A DNA stretch of 64,000 nucleotides, from positions 62,001 through 126,000 of the forward strand of contig QCGG01000002.1 in assembly GCA_003280055.1 (NCBI GenBank), given 5' to 3'. The DNA is from Prochlorococcus sp. AG-363-P19. Lineage in GTDB: Bacteria; Cyanobacteriota; Cyanobacteriia; PCC-6307; Cyanobiaceae. The notes under the pieces are model-generated. The model was given only the letters and a program-made list of their open reading frames with translations, did no database searches and had not been told where the DNA came from. A program made the translations under genes and the position numbers. Each line of letters opens with the position of its first letter. Position 1 is the first letter of the stretch. This document shows, one piece after another, positions 6,218 through 44,562 of the stretch.

Positions 6218-7195
6218 TCAAGACTCATTTCCGGATCTCTTACGCAATAAAGACAACAACCTAAGAAATTCCAACGGTAAAGGAGCCTCAAAATTCATTC
6301 GTGATCCTGTAATGGGATGATCCAAGCCAAGTTGAATAGCATGTAAGGCCTGTCCTGACAAATTAATAGGAAGTTTTTTACGACGGCTATAAATAGGATC
6401 GCCAACAATTGGGTGCCCAAGGTGAGAGCAATGAACACGAATCTGATGAGTGCGGCCAGTATCTAATTTGAAACGCAATAATGAATAATCGCCAAGACGT
6501 TCCTTCAATTGCCAACTTGTAGAAGCATATCGACCAATATCATCGGACACTACAGCGTATTTCTTTCTATCAACAGGATGTCTTCCAATCGCACCTTTAA
6601 TCATTCCTTCATCACCTTTAAGTACTCCATGAACAACAGCTAAATAATTACGTGATGCAATTCTTCTTTGAATCTGTTTCTGCAAACTAACCAAAGACTC
6701 TTGACTCTTTGCAATAACAATACAACCAGTAGTGTCCTTATCAAGCCGGTGTACTATTCCTGGTCTCAGCTTCCCATTAATCCCAGGTAGATCATTGCAA
6801 TGATATAAAATTCCATTCACTAATGTACCATCCTTATTTCCAGGTGCAGGATGAACAGTTAGGCCTGCTGGTTTATTTACTACAATTAAATGGTCATCTT
6901 CAAATAAAATATCAAGATCCATTTTTTCTGGTTTTAAATAAGGTAATGGTTCTGGCGGTGGGATCCAAATAACAACCTCATCTCCTTCTCTTAAAGGAGT
7001 TTTAGATAAGCCAATTTTTCCATTTATTCGAACATATCCTGCATCAATAAACTTTTGAATTCTATTTCGACTTTGCTCTTGTCGCTGGCTCACCAACCAA
7101 CGATCTAGCCTCATAGGTAAAGGTTTTAAATAAACAAGCTTAACCAGCTCACCTTCTCCTTCCTTAAACCCCAATAGTTGTTCTTTAGAGTTCAT
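6218..7195 (-). CDS. rluD: 23S rRNA pseudouridine synthase, RluD family
   Basis: RsuA/RluA/RluD-type pseudouridine synthase of 325 residues. An N-terminal S4 RNA-binding domain starts at MRLDRWLVSQ, and the catalytic motif GIVHRLDKDTTGC carries the nucleophilic Asp. Further family motifs are VNKPAGLTVHP, GRTHQIRVH and GHPIVGDP. The ATG at 7195 overlaps the rbgA stop as ATGA, which fixes the start and suggests translational coupling; 11 more upstream codons are open but lie inside rbgA. Target site (RluD versus RluC-like specificity) cannot be settled from sequence alone. It is the last gene of the usp-rbgA-rluD chain. Confidence 0.9.
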   Translation of the reverse strand: MNSKEQLLGFKEGEGELVKLVYLKPLPMRLDRWLVSQRQEQSRNRIQKFIDAGYVRINGKIGLSKTPLREGDEVVIWIPPPEPLPYLKPEKMDLDILFEDDHLIVVNKPAGLTVHPAPGNKDGTLVNGILYHCNDLPGINGKLRPGIVHRLDKDTTGCIVIAKSQESLVSLQKQIQRRIASRNYLAVVHGVLKGDEGMIKGAIGRHPVDRKKYAVVSDDIGRYASTSWQLKERLGDYSLLRFKLDTGRTHQIRVHCSHLGHPIVGDPIYSRRKKLPINLSGQALHAIQLGLDHPITGSRMNFEAPLPLEFLRLLSLLRKRSGNES

Positions 7196-8049
7196 GGGAG
7201 TTCCAATGTAATCTGACCCAGAGAACATTTCCGAAAATCATCCAATAATCTTTGTGCCATTCTCTGAGCATCGCCTGAGGTATTTCTTTGAGCTAATACA
7301 CTCAGCCATTCATGACAATCTTTAGCTTGTTTCGGGATAGGAATCCCATAACGCCTCTGCAAGATTGAACTTGAACAAATAGCTTGATTTTCTAGCTCTA
7401 CCAACATCTTAAGGAACTCAACTGCAACAATTTCAACGTCATATGCTCCCTGACCAATGTCATCACAAATAGCAAGAAGTAAAGCAGATTTTTGATCATC
7501 CAACCTTGGAGGCAATACGCCCGGAGCATCCAGCAAATCCAAATCCTGGCCAACCCTTACCCAACGCAAAGTGCGAGTAACACCAGCCCGTCTAGCACTC
7601 GCAACAATCTTCTGACGAACCAATCGATTAATTAACGCAGACTTTCCAACATTCGGGAATCCTAAAACAAGTGCTCGAACTGGTCGTCTCCGCATGCCTC
7701 TAGAAAAACGGCGTTTATTAAGCTGGCGACCAGAACGAATTGCAGCTTGTTGAATCTGCTTCACACCTTTTCCACTTTTAGCGTCGCACCACCATGGAAT
7801 TTGCCCTTTTCCCCTAAACCATTTATCCCATAAAGCCATGGTTTCTTTGGAAACCATGTCTCGTCTATTTAAGACTAAAAGATGTTGCTTCCCACTAATC
7901 CAACGCTTTAAGCGTGGATGAGAAGTAGATAGTGGAATTCTTGCATCACGTACTTCAATCACTAAATCAACCTTGTCCAAACTATTGGCCAACTGTTGTT
8001 CTGCTTTAGCAATATGGCCTGGATACCACTGAATAGTTAAAGAACTCAT
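7192..8049 (-). CDS. rbgA: Ribosome biogenesis GTPase RbgA/YlqF
   Basis: Circularly permuted GTPase needed for late 50S assembly in other bacteria. The order is permuted: NRRD (G4) comes before GFPNVGKS (G1), followed by DAPGVL (G3). The N-terminus IQWYPGHIAKAE is the YlqF signature. The ATG at 8049 gives 285 residues and overlaps the usp stop as ATGA; a longer frame of 20 codons upstream lies within usp and is rejected. The 3' end overlaps the rluD start in the same way, so rRNA modification and ribosome assembly proteins are likely co-translated. Confidence 0.93.
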   Translation of the reverse strand: MSSLTIQWYPGHIAKAEQQLANSLDKVDLVIEVRDARIPLSTSHPRLKRWISGKQHLLVLNRRDMVSKETMALWDKWFRGKGQIPWWCDAKSGKGVKQIQQAAIRSGRQLNKRRFSRGMRRRPVRALVLGFPNVGKSALINRLVRQKIVASARRAGVTRTLRWVRVGQDLDLLDAPGVLPPRLDDQKSALLLAICDDIGQGAYDVEIVAVEFLKMLVELENQAICSSSILQRRYGIPIPKQAKDCHEWLSVLAQRNTSGDAQRMAQRLLDDFRKCSLGQITLELP

Positions 8050-40519: not shown

Positions 40520-41452
40520 CTAATACTTAGCAGGCAATCTAATTTTTCTAGCCAACCCAAGAAATCTTAAAAAGCGTATATGTTGCCAAGTGAGATCTAT
40601 TTGCCCTGGCTGAAGACCTTGAAGGGCCGAATTAGGAAAGGCATGATGATTGTTATGCCATCCCTCACCAAAAGTTAAAGCTGCAACCCAAGGGTTGTTC
40701 TTTGAACTATCTCCACTCTCATAGATCACACTTCCCCAGCAATGAGTTGCTGAGTTGACTAGCCATGTCACGTGATAGACAAAAACCAAGCGAAGGGGGA
40801 TTCCCCATAACACCATTGACCATCCTCCAACTCCACTAAGAGTGCCAATCCAAAAAAGCATTGCCCCTAAAGGGATCTGCAACAAAAGAAAGTTTTTATT
40901 TAACCAACGATAATAAGGATCTCTATATAAATCGCCACTTAAACGTGCGACAGCTTTCATAGCCGGGATAGGTTCAAACATCCATCCCATATGACTCCAC
41001 CAAAAACCTTTATTACTATTGTGATGATCTGCATCAGTATCAGAAAAGGTGTGATGGTGACGATGTAATCCGACCCAATCAATTGGACCGTGCTGACAAC
41101 TCAAGGCACCGCATGTAGCAAAAAAGCGCTCAAGCCATTTCGGAACTCGGAAAGCACGGTGGGAAAGAAGGCGGTGATAGCCAAGGGTCACTCCCAAACA
41201 TGCTGTGACCCAATACAAAATCAAAAAAGCTATAAAAGCCTGCAAACTCCAAAATTTAGGAATTAACGCAACGGCTGTTAATAGATGAATAGCAATCATG
41301 AATCCAACCGTTCCCCATCTTTTTTGTTCCTTTTTCCATGGCCTAGAAGTATTTCTTGACGAGGCTTGCAACTTTGCCGAATATTCAATTGCCTGTTGCG
41401 GAGCTACAGGCCTAGACAAAGGAGCTGGAGCCGCAAAAACATCCGAAGCCAT
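40520..41452 (-). CDS. Acyl-lipid fatty acid desaturase (delta-9/DesC type), intact copy
   Basis: 310-residue membrane diiron enzyme. Three histidine boxes are intact: HRLLSH at 93-98, HRHHH at 130-134 and HNNHH at 266-270. Membrane spans surround them (AIHLLTAVALIPKFW, FIAFLILYWVTAC). It inserts a cis double bond in glycerolipid-bound acyl chains using ferredoxin and O2. The frame is open to 41503 but the start MASDVFAAPAPL at 41452 is preferred. A pseudogene of the same family lies beyond the next gene (42244-43090). Confidence 0.9.
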   Translation of the reverse strand: MASDVFAAPAPLSRPVAPQQAIEYSAKLQASSRNTSRPWKKEQKRWGTVGFMIAIHLLTAVALIPKFWSLQAFIAFLILYWVTACLGVTLGYHRLLSHRAFRVPKWLERFFATCGALSCQHGPIDWVGLHRHHHTFSDTDADHHNSNKGFWWSHMGWMFEPIPAMKAVARLSGDLYRDPYYRWLNKNFLLLQIPLGAMLFWIGTLSGVGGWSMVLWGIPLRLVFVYHVTWLVNSATHCWGSVIYESGDSSKNNPWVAALTFGEGWHNNHHAFPNSALQGLQPGQIDLTWQHIRFLRFLGLARKIRLPAKY

Positions 41453-41533
41453 GAGCGATCCGCAAACTGTCAAGATATAATAATAGATCAGGATCCATAT
41501 CACTAAACCTAGAGCGATCCTGAATCTGATCCC

Positions 41534-42250
41534 TTGAGTATTGGCTTTCGCGATCGACTATCAGAGGGGCGACGAGCAATGGCCCACCTCATCCATGTTT
41601 GGCATGAGAGAAATGGTTGGTCTCACAAAGTACTTCCAGCGCTCGCAGAAGCTCTAGATCTTGGAAAAGTACATAGTTCTCAGATTTCCAATCTACGCAA
41701 TGGAAAGCTATCTTCTCCTGGCCCAGAGGTTTTTCTTGCTTTAGCGCAAGCAAATGCCGTCTTATTTGAAGGCATAGAAAACGCAAAAGGTCGCTTAGTG
41801 GAGATACACCCGGAATTACTGCAAGTACTCCAAAACGCTGCTCTTCCTTTAGAAGGAGATGATGGGCAACCATTAGGAGCTGGGACACTATTTGAAATTT
41901 TTATAGGGTTACAACCTTTACCTACTTGCTTTGACTGGTTTATTGAGGACGACGAGGCTATCGAACTAAGTGCTGCACTAGCTGATTATTTATGCGATGG
42001 CCGAACATGGCGCAATTGTCGTGACAAAGTAATGGAAGCTTATCCAATAAACAAATTATCTAGAAGAGAACGATTTGCAGAAGTCATGGCAGGAGTCAAA
42101 GACTACAGTGCAGAAGATTTAGATGGCGAATTAATTGATCTAAATACAACCCATATTGCTCTAGGTGGCAATCCACAACAAGGGGCAAATGACTTCTTAA
42201 ATAGTCTGCGTATTCGTGCAAAGAGAATTAAAAGTCAAAACTCTCATTGA
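41534..42250 (+). CDS. Hypothetical protein with helix-turn-helix-like N-terminus
   Basis: 238 residues from TTG 41534, or 223 from ATG 41579. The N-terminal part (ALDLGKVHSSQISNLRNGKL) resembles an XRE-like HTH recognition helix. The rest is helical and acidic (DWFIEDDEAIELSAALADYL, SRRERFAEVMAG). Picocyanobacterial in flavour, no known domain. It is divergent from the intact desaturase and convergent with, and overlapping by seven bases, the dead desaturase, which makes a regulatory link to fatty-acid desaturation an idea worth testing, not a claim. Confidence 0.6.
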   Translation: MSIGFRDRLSEGRRAMAHLIHVWHERNGWSHKVLPALAEALDLGKVHSSQISNLRNGKLSSPGPEVFLALAQANAVLFEGIENAKGRLVEIHPELLQVLQNAALPLEGDDGQPLGAGTLFEIFIGLQPLPTCFDWFIEDDEAIELSAALADYLCDGRTWRNCRDKVMEAYPINKLSRRERFAEVMAGVKDYSAEDLDGELIDLNTTHIALGGNPQQGANDFLNSLRIRAKRIKSQNSH

Positions 42251-43090
42251 ACATATTTAACATTACGAAGTCGATGAGCTAAGCCAAAACTCCTCAATAA
42301 TTTGATGTGTGTCTATATCAATTCAAATTCAAACCAACGCAGCCCATGATGTGCACTGTTTGGATAAACAGGATGATGATTGTGCCAACCCTCACCAAAA
42401 AAAAATGGCACCCCACCAACAATCAGTTGATAAGTCTGGCGAATCAAAGTTTCTATAGCCAAATTTATGTGTCGCGAAGTTAACAAACCAAGTTGCTGAG
42501 TAAACAATCACCATTCTCAACGTAATTCCCCATAGAGAAAGACCTATTCCATCACCTTTAACTTTCATCCACTCTCCAAACCAATAAAGAACTAATCTAA
42601 GAGGTATTTGCAACAACAAAAATCAATGATCCAGCCAACATTCAAAAGGATCCTCTAACAAGTCGCCAAAAAATTTATCACTAACACGAAGAGGTGGAAT
42701 CTCATGCAACATCCACTCACTATGACTCCACCAGAAACCACGACCAGCATCATGATGGTCATTTGGCTGATCAGAAAACTTATGGTGATGCCTATGAAGG
42801 GCAACCCATTTGACAGGACCAATCTGACAAGCTAAAGATCCCATCAAAACAAATGTTCGTTCAACCCAAACTGGGACATCAAAACTGCGATGTGCGACAA
42901 GTCTATGCAAGCCAAGCGTGACCCCTAAAACAGTTACCCAATAAAAAACAAAAACTCCTAGGGGTTGACAACTCCAAAAACGTGGCAAAAGAGCAAATGC
43001 TGCTGCAAAGTGAAGTACAAAAATAAACCCAGTTGTGCCATCCCTAAACCTTCTTTGAGAGAGAGGCAATGGTTTCCGTCGGAGCGACAT
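42244..43090 (-). pseudogene. Degraded second fatty acid desaturase (DesC-like)
   Basis: Colinear with the intact desaturase from MSLRRKPLPL at 43090 to a natural TGA at 42244-42246. Three lesions: an in-frame TGA at 42623-42625 (paralogue reads YRWLNKN), a one-base insertion in a run of nine T on the coding strand (42397-42405; eight T would restore FFFGEGW), and an in-frame TAG at 42313-42315 (paralogue TWQHIRFL). Histidine boxes one and two (HRLVAH, HRHHH) survive; the third reads HNHHP against HNNHH in the paralogue. The rest of the frame still aligns, so loss is recent. Confidence 0.85.
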
Positions 43091-43254
43091 CCCTGCCTCA
43101 AGCGAAACTCCCTAGTAATCTTTGAGGGCAATGAATATCTGAGGCCAAGACAAACCTCCTAAGTTGCACAATGCAATCAGTACGAAGCTCATGCGAGAGC
43201 AGGACTGGATAGCAACTTGAAAAATTTATCAACTACTACCCCTTAAGGCTTTTT

Positions 43255-44562
43255 GTGCAAAAACTCCCTTCAAATAAATACAACGAGCAAGTAATTGAAA
43301 CATGGGTCAACCAAGAGATATCCAATGCTTTCAAGCAAATTGAAAATTTTGCTTTAGCTAAAACTGCAGGGGTCAAGGAACACCTTGAAAGAGTTTTAAA
43401 CGCTTTCTCTTCCGAAAAAATTGGCTCTCATAATTTTTCTTCTCTTTCCGGCTATGGCCATGGAGATCACAATAGAGATTCCATAGACAGGGTATTTGCA
43501 AAAATTCTTGGGGCTGAAAAAGCAGCAGTCCGTATGCAATTCGTAAGTGGAACACACGCAATATGCAGCGCATTATTTGGCATTCTCAGGCCTGGCGACA
43601 AACTCTTATGCATAACAGGTCAGCCCTATGACACTCTTGAAGAAGTTATTGGAACCAGAGGCAAAGGCCAAGGTTCATTAATTGATTTTGGAATCTCTTA
43701 CGAAGAGATAAGTCTAAAAGATGATGGAAAAATTGACATTAAGAGTCTAAATAAAGCACTAGAAATTAATAGGAAAGTCGTTTTTATTCAACGAAGTTGT
43801 GGTTATAACTGGAGACCTTCGCTTACAATAAATTCTATCAAGAATCTATGTGAAAGGATACATAATAGGCAACCAGATTGCATTTGCTTTGTGGATAATT
43901 GCTATGGAGAATTTGTTGAGAACAGAGAACCAACTGAAGTTGGCGCAGATCTAATTGCTGGCTCTTTAATCAAAAATCTAGGTGGAACAATCACACCTAC
44001 AGGTGGCTACATTGCGGGCAGAGCAAACTTGGTTGAACAAGCCTGCTGTCGCCTAACAGCACCTGGCATAGGAAACAAAGGTGGCACAAGCTTTGATTTG
44101 AATCGGCTCGTATTGCAAGGTCTCTTCTTGTCTCCCCAAATGGTTTCAGAAGCACTGATTGGAGCCGAGCTAAGTGCAGAAGTTTTCAGATCACTCGGTT
44201 TTGATGTCAACCCAACCCCTGGAGAAAATCGAGGGGACATTATTCAAGCAGTTTGCTTAAGAAGCCCAAAAGCAATAAAAGTAGTTTGCCAAGCATTCCA
44301 AGCTTCTTCTCCGATAGGCTCATATCTTGATCCGATTCCTGCTGAGATGCCTGGTTATAACAATGATTTACTGATGGCTGGTGGAACCTTTATTGACGGA
44401 AGCACAAGTGAATTCTCTGCTGACGCTCCTCTCAAACCACCCTATAACTTATATATTCAAGGTGGAACGCATCACGCACATATCAAGATTGCTCTTAAAA
44501 AAGCATTGATTGCGCTTTTAAAAACCGATTTAATTGCGTTGCCGCCACTCTCAACCACCTAA
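43255..44562 (+). CDS. Aluminium-resistance-family PLP enzyme (methionine gamma-lyase-like)
   Basis: 435-residue fold-type I PLP protein of the family named after an aluminium resistance gene (PF06838). VSGTHAICSALFGILRPGD is the cofactor-phosphate region, Asp214 in CFVDNCYGEF contacts the ring, and the Schiff-base Lys is expected at 240 in SLIKNLGGTITPTGGYIAG. Related proteins are described as cystathionine/methionine lyase-like; the real substrate is unproven. Start GTG 43255. It runs into gcvH 20 bases later, so co-transcription is likely. Confidence 0.85.
   Translation: MQKLPSNKYNEQVIETWVNQEISNAFKQIENFALAKTAGVKEHLERVLNAFSSEKIGSHNFSSLSGYGHGDHNRDSIDRVFAKILGAEKAAVRMQFVSGTHAICSALFGILRPGDKLLCITGQPYDTLEEVIGTRGKGQGSLIDFGISYEEISLKDDGKIDIKSLNKALEINRKVVFIQRSCGYNWRPSLTINSIKNLCERIHNRQPDCICFVDNCYGEFVENREPTEVGADLIAGSLIKNLGGTITPTGGYIAGRANLVEQACCRLTAPGIGNKGGTSFDLNRLVLQGLFLSPQMVSEALIGAELSAEVFRSLGFDVNPTPGENRGDIIQAVCLRSPKAIKVVCQAFQASSPIGSYLDPIPAEMPGYNNDLLMAGGTFIDGSTSEFSADAPLKPPYNLYIQGGTHHAHIKIALKKALIALLKTDLIALPPLSTT

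What the first reader, a model, noticed from the sequence alone, without database searches (positions are those of the whole stretch)
42244..43090. Recently dead desaturase beside a living paralogue
Three clean lesions (TGA at 42623-42625, one extra T in a nine-T run at 42397-42405, TAG at 42313-42315) interrupt an otherwise colinear DesC-like frame that still ends at a natural stop. Histidine boxes one and two survive but the third is altered (HNHHP versus HNNHH). The number of independent lesions argues against a sequencing error and for loss of the enzyme after selection relaxed. Prochlorococcus genomes are streamlined, so catching decay mid-way is informative about membrane adaptation in this lineage.
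Basis: seen in the sequence. Interest (0 to 1): 0.6.

Follow-up and report, generated by a model that had tools for sequence, protein, structure and literature searches.

The report
Decaying desaturase gene in Prochlorococcus relative
A membrane-lipid desaturase gene that is intact in 96 of 130 other genomes sampled from its family has died recently in this one marine cyanobacterial lineage, while its ancient neighbouring sister gene stays healthy; it is a well-documented but ordinary case of gene loss in a streamlining genome.

Summary
On the minus strand at 42244-43148 lies the remnant of a DesC-type fatty-acid desaturase in a conserved block: dnaB, rplI, desaturase Y (intact), an unnamed 223-aa gene, X (this one), Met_gamma_lyase, gcvH, gcvP. 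Both nonsense codons are Trp TGG->TGA/TAG. The T9 run is not "one extra T" but a 2-bp deletion (CA) relative to orthologues. Missed lesions: two 1-bp deletions upstream (from the conserved TTG start at 43148 the frame stops after 16 codons), a 3-bp deletion, and loss of the His in the HVTWLVNSATH box. Among 131 family genomes at least 90% complete, 96 carry X with no internal stop, 34 lack it, and only this one is broken. Codon modelling gives dN/dS 0.17 on this branch against 0.03 elsewhere (2dlnL 28.5), but below 1 (9.7): constraint for most of the branch, then about 0.09 neutral substitutions per site. Y shows no relaxation. X is probably the DesC3-class enzyme ("core" in marine Synechococcus) and Y the DesC4 class. 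Other picocyanobacteria have lost X or Y cleanly; here X is caught mid-loss, independently of the clade-wide loss. New example of a known process.

The parts
42244..43148 (-). Remnant of DesC-type desaturase X (probably DesC3 class), conserved TTG start to natural TGA stop
   Evidence: 78% DNA identity to the intact G001 orthologue in the same syntenic place; PF00487 hit over cut-off with a stop inside
43146..43148 (-). Conserved ancestral start codon (TTG)
   Evidence: Aligns with the start of the G001 ORF and with the common start of most orthologues
43134..43136 (-). 1-bp deletion (TTT to TT); frame then stops after 16 codons from the TTG
   Evidence: Alignment with G001; placement within the run arbitrary
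43091..43097 (-). Second 1-bp deletion; together with the first leaves the reading net -2
   Evidence: exact position uncertain by a few bases
42945..42972 (-). Loss of 3 bases in total (in frame; placed as one 3-bp gap by MAFFT, as 1+2 by pairwise alignment)
42623..42625 (-). Nonsense TGG to TGA at an invariant Trp (LDHW-FLLLQIP)
   Evidence: Trp in all 18 orthologues
42460..42500 (-). Damaged histidine domain: HVTWLVNSATH has become [11 protein letters not shown]
   Evidence: domain described in PMC4390868
42397..42405 (-). T9 run made by a 2-bp (CA) deletion, frameshift
   Evidence: Seven orthologues keep 12 bases here, window 10
42370..42390 (-). Last histidine box changed: WHNNHHA to WHNHHPV
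   Evidence: Invariant HNNHH in the orthologues
42313..42315 (-). Nonsense TGG to TAG at an invariant Trp (TWQHIK)
40520..41503 (-). Intact tandem desaturase Y (probably DesC4 class), all His boxes present; branch dN/dS 0.045
41579..42250 (+). Conserved 223-aa gene between Y and X, no Pfam or NCBIfam match; 3' end overlaps the end of X
43255..44562 (+). PF06838 Met_gamma_lyase family gene, upstream neighbour of X

Best explanation
X is a pseudogene. The ancestor of this lineage carried two tandem Delta-9 acyl-lipid desaturases, X (probably the DesC3 class) and Y (probably the DesC4 class), separated by a conserved 223-aa gene. After the split from the closest available relative G001, constraint on X was lost. 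The gene then collected at least two nonsense changes, two 1-bp deletions, one 2-bp deletion, one 3-bp deletion and replacements of catalytic histidines, at roughly 0.09 neutral substitutions per site. Shown here: orthology, lesions, relaxed constraint on X, continued constraint on Y. Inferred: that the cell now relies on Y for Delta-9 desaturation, that the loss was tolerated because X and Y overlap in function, and the DesC3/DesC4 names. The natural end point is complete removal, as in the Prochlorococcus lineages where the two flanking genes now lie about 40-90 bp apart (alignment ends).
For: Lesions and alignments. Orthologue intact in the same block in G001, AG-363-P08 and about 20 other genomes. 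96 copies with no stop, 34 absent, one broken in 131 genomes of the family. dN/dS 0.173 against 0.032, 2dlnL 28.5; against 1.0, 2dlnL 9.7; range about 0.10-0.39. Two stops observed against 3.4 expected in a simulation at 0.09 neutral substitutions per site, P(2 or fewer) = 0.33. 21 of 164 invariant residues changed. Living Y dN/dS 0.045. Flanking genes show equal branch lengths for window and G001 (0.160 and 0.158), whereas X shows 0.586 against 0.160. The rest of the window is densely filled with long ORFs.
Against: The genome is a draft in 29 contigs and reads could not be inspected. No second strain of the same species was available to show the lesions are fixed. The sister gene in G001 may also be somewhat relaxed (dN/dS 0.116 when freed together with the window branch, 2dlnL about 6.6), so relaxation could predate the split. 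Synonymous sites are partly saturated.
Confidence: 0.95

Rival explanations
1. The breaks are sequencing or assembly errors in a draft genome and the gene is intact.
For: 29-contig draft; one lesion lies in a nine-base homopolymer.
Against: At least five separate disabling lesions in about 900 bp while the neighbours are full length; the homopolymer arose by loss of CA, not by a run-length slip; 21 invariant residues and catalytic histidines are also replaced; X alone has a long branch.
Confidence: 0.02
2. The frame is recoded or read through and still makes an active desaturase.
For: Averaged over the branch, dN/dS is below 1.
Against: TGA and TAG, three frame-breaking deletions and loss of the last two histidine motifs would all have to be tolerated; dN/dS below 1 is explained by constraint before death.
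Confidence: 0.01
3. A shortened N-terminal protein (155 codons from ATG 43090) has been kept for a new role.
For: This stretch is open and holds the first two histidine boxes.
Against: Its ATG arises beside a deletion and is not the ancestral start; it lacks the last histidine boxes needed for the di-iron site; conserved residues are altered in this part too, for example GPIEW to GPVKW.
Confidence: 0.02
4. Loss was favoured by selection (membrane composition for a stable deep or warm habitat) rather than merely tolerated. This is a rival on the cause, not on the fact, of the loss.
For: X is absent from a whole clade of small Prochlorococcus genomes; desaturase content follows thermal niche in marine Synechococcus (PMC9124967, PMC7393227).
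Against: No habitat, lipid or expression data for this genome; the niche-linked gene in the literature is desC4, which by the distribution seen here is Y, not X.
Confidence: 0.3

Closest known systems
DesC Delta-9 acyl-lipid desaturases of marine picocyanobacteria (desC3 core, desC4 cold-thermotype-linked; PMC9124967, PMC7393227, PMC9361551)
   Same: Orthologues in the same block carry the HRLVAH, HRHHH, HVTWLVNSATH and GEGWHNNHH motifs and PF00487
   Different: This copy has two stops, net frameshifts and lost histidines, so it is not a working member
Clean absence of X in Prochlorococcus clades (G013, G062, G089, G006, G020, G019) and in G028, G033 and G085
   Same: The same gene is missing from the same place
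   Different: There it is fully removed; here it is still mostly present. The window lineage lies outside those clades
Absence of Y (usually with the 223-aa gene) in genus g5 and in AG-363-O15 (L043)
   Same: One of the two tandem desaturases is lost
   Different: The other partner is lost there, a reciprocal outcome

Membership tests
Functional DesC-type desaturase | Membrane desaturase domain PF00487 | tested here: met
   35.2 bits, cut-off 29.7, with one TGA inside
Functional DesC-type desaturase | First and second histidine boxes (HRLVAHRSF, HRHHH) | tested here: met
Functional DesC-type desaturase | HVTWLVNSATH domain and final HNNHH box | tested here: not met
   [11 protein letters not shown] and HNHHP in the window
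Functional DesC-type desaturase | Uninterrupted reading frame | tested here: not met
   Two stops and net frameshifts
Bacterial pseudogene | Intact orthologue at the same locus in close relatives | tested here: met
   G001 and AG-363-P08
Bacterial pseudogene | Relaxed constraint on the lineage | tested here: met
   Branch dN/dS 0.173 against 0.032, 2dlnL 28.5
Bacterial pseudogene | Same lesions shared by other strains of the species | not testable with these tools
   One genome per species held; no relative found in viral contigs
DesC3 class (naming of X) | X is the copy kept where desC4 is absent (warm Synechococcus clades) | tested here: inconclusive

The most novel reading that the evidence does not exclude
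Picocyanobacteria inherited two tandem Delta-9 desaturases that overlap enough for either to be lost but not both. Synechococcus of the sampled genus g5 kept X, reduced Prochlorococcus kept Y, and the window lineage is a freeze-frame of an independent repeat of the Prochlorococcus-type loss.
Probability: 0.55. Interest if true: 0.4.

Novelty: new member of a known kind. Interest (0 to 1): 0.3.

Why it matters
It gives an intermediate stage, with a rough relative date, of the loss of one of two partner desaturases in a streamlining marine cyanobacterium, with intact copies in the same genus for comparison. It suggests which of the two enzymes can be dispensed with in this Prochlorococcus lineage, and so makes the redundancy of the pair testable. 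The process itself, pseudogene decay in a reducing genome, is well known.

Tried and rejected
My first naming of X as desC4 was dropped after the family survey: genus g5 keeps X and lacks Y, which fits the literature only if X is the core desC3 and Y is desC4. The same-genus genome G002 was checked for the locus, but the whole block is missing from its 74%-complete assembly, so it says nothing. A phage source or host-derived viral contig was sought and none found. No paper describing this pseudogene was found. A recent duplication was rejected: X and Y are 50% identical and both are present in Synechococcus WH7803, RCC307 and WH5701.

Full report
Observation. Aligned to the same-genus orthologue (G001, locus L116) and to others, the remnant runs from a conserved TTG start at 43148 to a natural TGA at 42244 on the minus strand. 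Lesions from the 5' end: a 1-bp deletion near 43135; a 1-bp deletion near 43096; loss of 3 bases between 42972 and 42945; TGG to TGA at 42623-42625; a 2-bp CA deletion that creates the T9 run at 42397-42405; TGG to TAG at 42313-42315. From the ancestral start only 16 codons can be read.

Protein level. The first two histidine boxes are kept. The HVTWLVNSATH domain, described as one of four conserved histidine domains in DesC1 and DesC2 (PMC4390868), has become [11 protein letters not shown], and WHNNHHA has become WHNHHPV. In 18 orthologues 164 aligned residues are invariant; 21 of them differ in the remnant, against 0 to 4 when each orthologue is left out in turn.

Context. The block dnaB, rplI, Y, 223-aa gene, X, Met_gamma_lyase, gcvH, gcvP is conserved across Prochlorococcus, marine Synechococcus and relatives. 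X and Y are 50% identical and both occur in WH7803, RCC307 and WH5701, so the duplication is ancient. In a survey of 131 family genomes at least 90% complete, I count 96 with X without any stop, 34 without X, and the window alone with stops (one of the 96 copies is cut by a contig end). Genomes lacking X keep Y, with one exception (G157, where only weak matches were found). Nine of the sampled genus g5 genomes keep X and lack Y. A tree of five flanking proteins puts the window beside G001 and AG-363-P08, both with intact X. The X-less Prochlorococcus form a separate clade (support 0.98 by FastTree), and G028 and genus g31 are further separate cases. The loss here is therefore independent.

Rates. 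A codon model (own implementation, F3x4, branch classes, nine taxa) gave dN/dS 0.173 on the window branch against 0.032 elsewhere (lnL -5109.65 against -5123.92 for one ratio) and rejected 1.0 (lnL -5114.48). The profile gives about 0.10 to 0.39. If the branch is a mix of constrained and neutral evolution, about 15% (7-37%) was neutral, or about 0.07-0.11 substitutions per site. Simulated neutral decay of the G001 gene at 0.09 gives 3.4 stops on average and 2 or fewer in 33% of runs; the observed number is 2. The same model on Y gives 0.045 for the window branch against 0.073, no relaxation. Flanking proteins show equal branch lengths for window and G001, so only X has sped up. Caveats: stops and the frameshift were masked, synonymous sites are partly saturated, and the G001 branch may also be slightly relaxed.

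Function and names. Marine Synechococcus literature describes desC3 as the core Delta-9 desaturase and desC4 as a second one missing from clades II and III (PMC9124967, PMC7393227, PMC9361551). Because genomes of genus g5 keep X and lack Y, X is most likely desC3 and Y desC4. The desC3 of these papers is a Cyanorak-style name and need not equal the DesC3 group of PMC4390868. The genome also encodes three other PF00487 proteins, one resembling CrtR and two DesA-like by their motifs (my reading of the motifs).

Verdict. A real, recent, independent pseudogenization of one of two ancient tandem desaturases; ordinary as a process, well documented as an example.

Noticed in passing
window 41579-42250 (+): A 223-aa gene conserved between the two desaturases in most of the family has no Pfam or NCBIfam match. 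It is missing together with Y in the sampled g5 genomes that lack Y and in L043, and from G096, which keeps Y. It could be a regulator of the pair.
   Followed up: partly
G007, G075, G110, G120, G130, G140, G150, G159, G168 (loci L118, L128, L130-L136) and L043: Reciprocal loss: these keep X and have lost Y, the opposite of Prochlorococcus genomes such as G013, G062 and G089.
   Followed up: partly
L116 (G001), X gene 7124-8032: The intact sister copy of X in G001 may itself be under slightly relaxed constraint (dN/dS about 0.12 when freed), so loss may be under way more widely in the genus.
   Followed up: partly
G157: A 99%-complete genome with only weak matches to either desaturase: a possible double loss or an assembly gap.
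   Followed up: no
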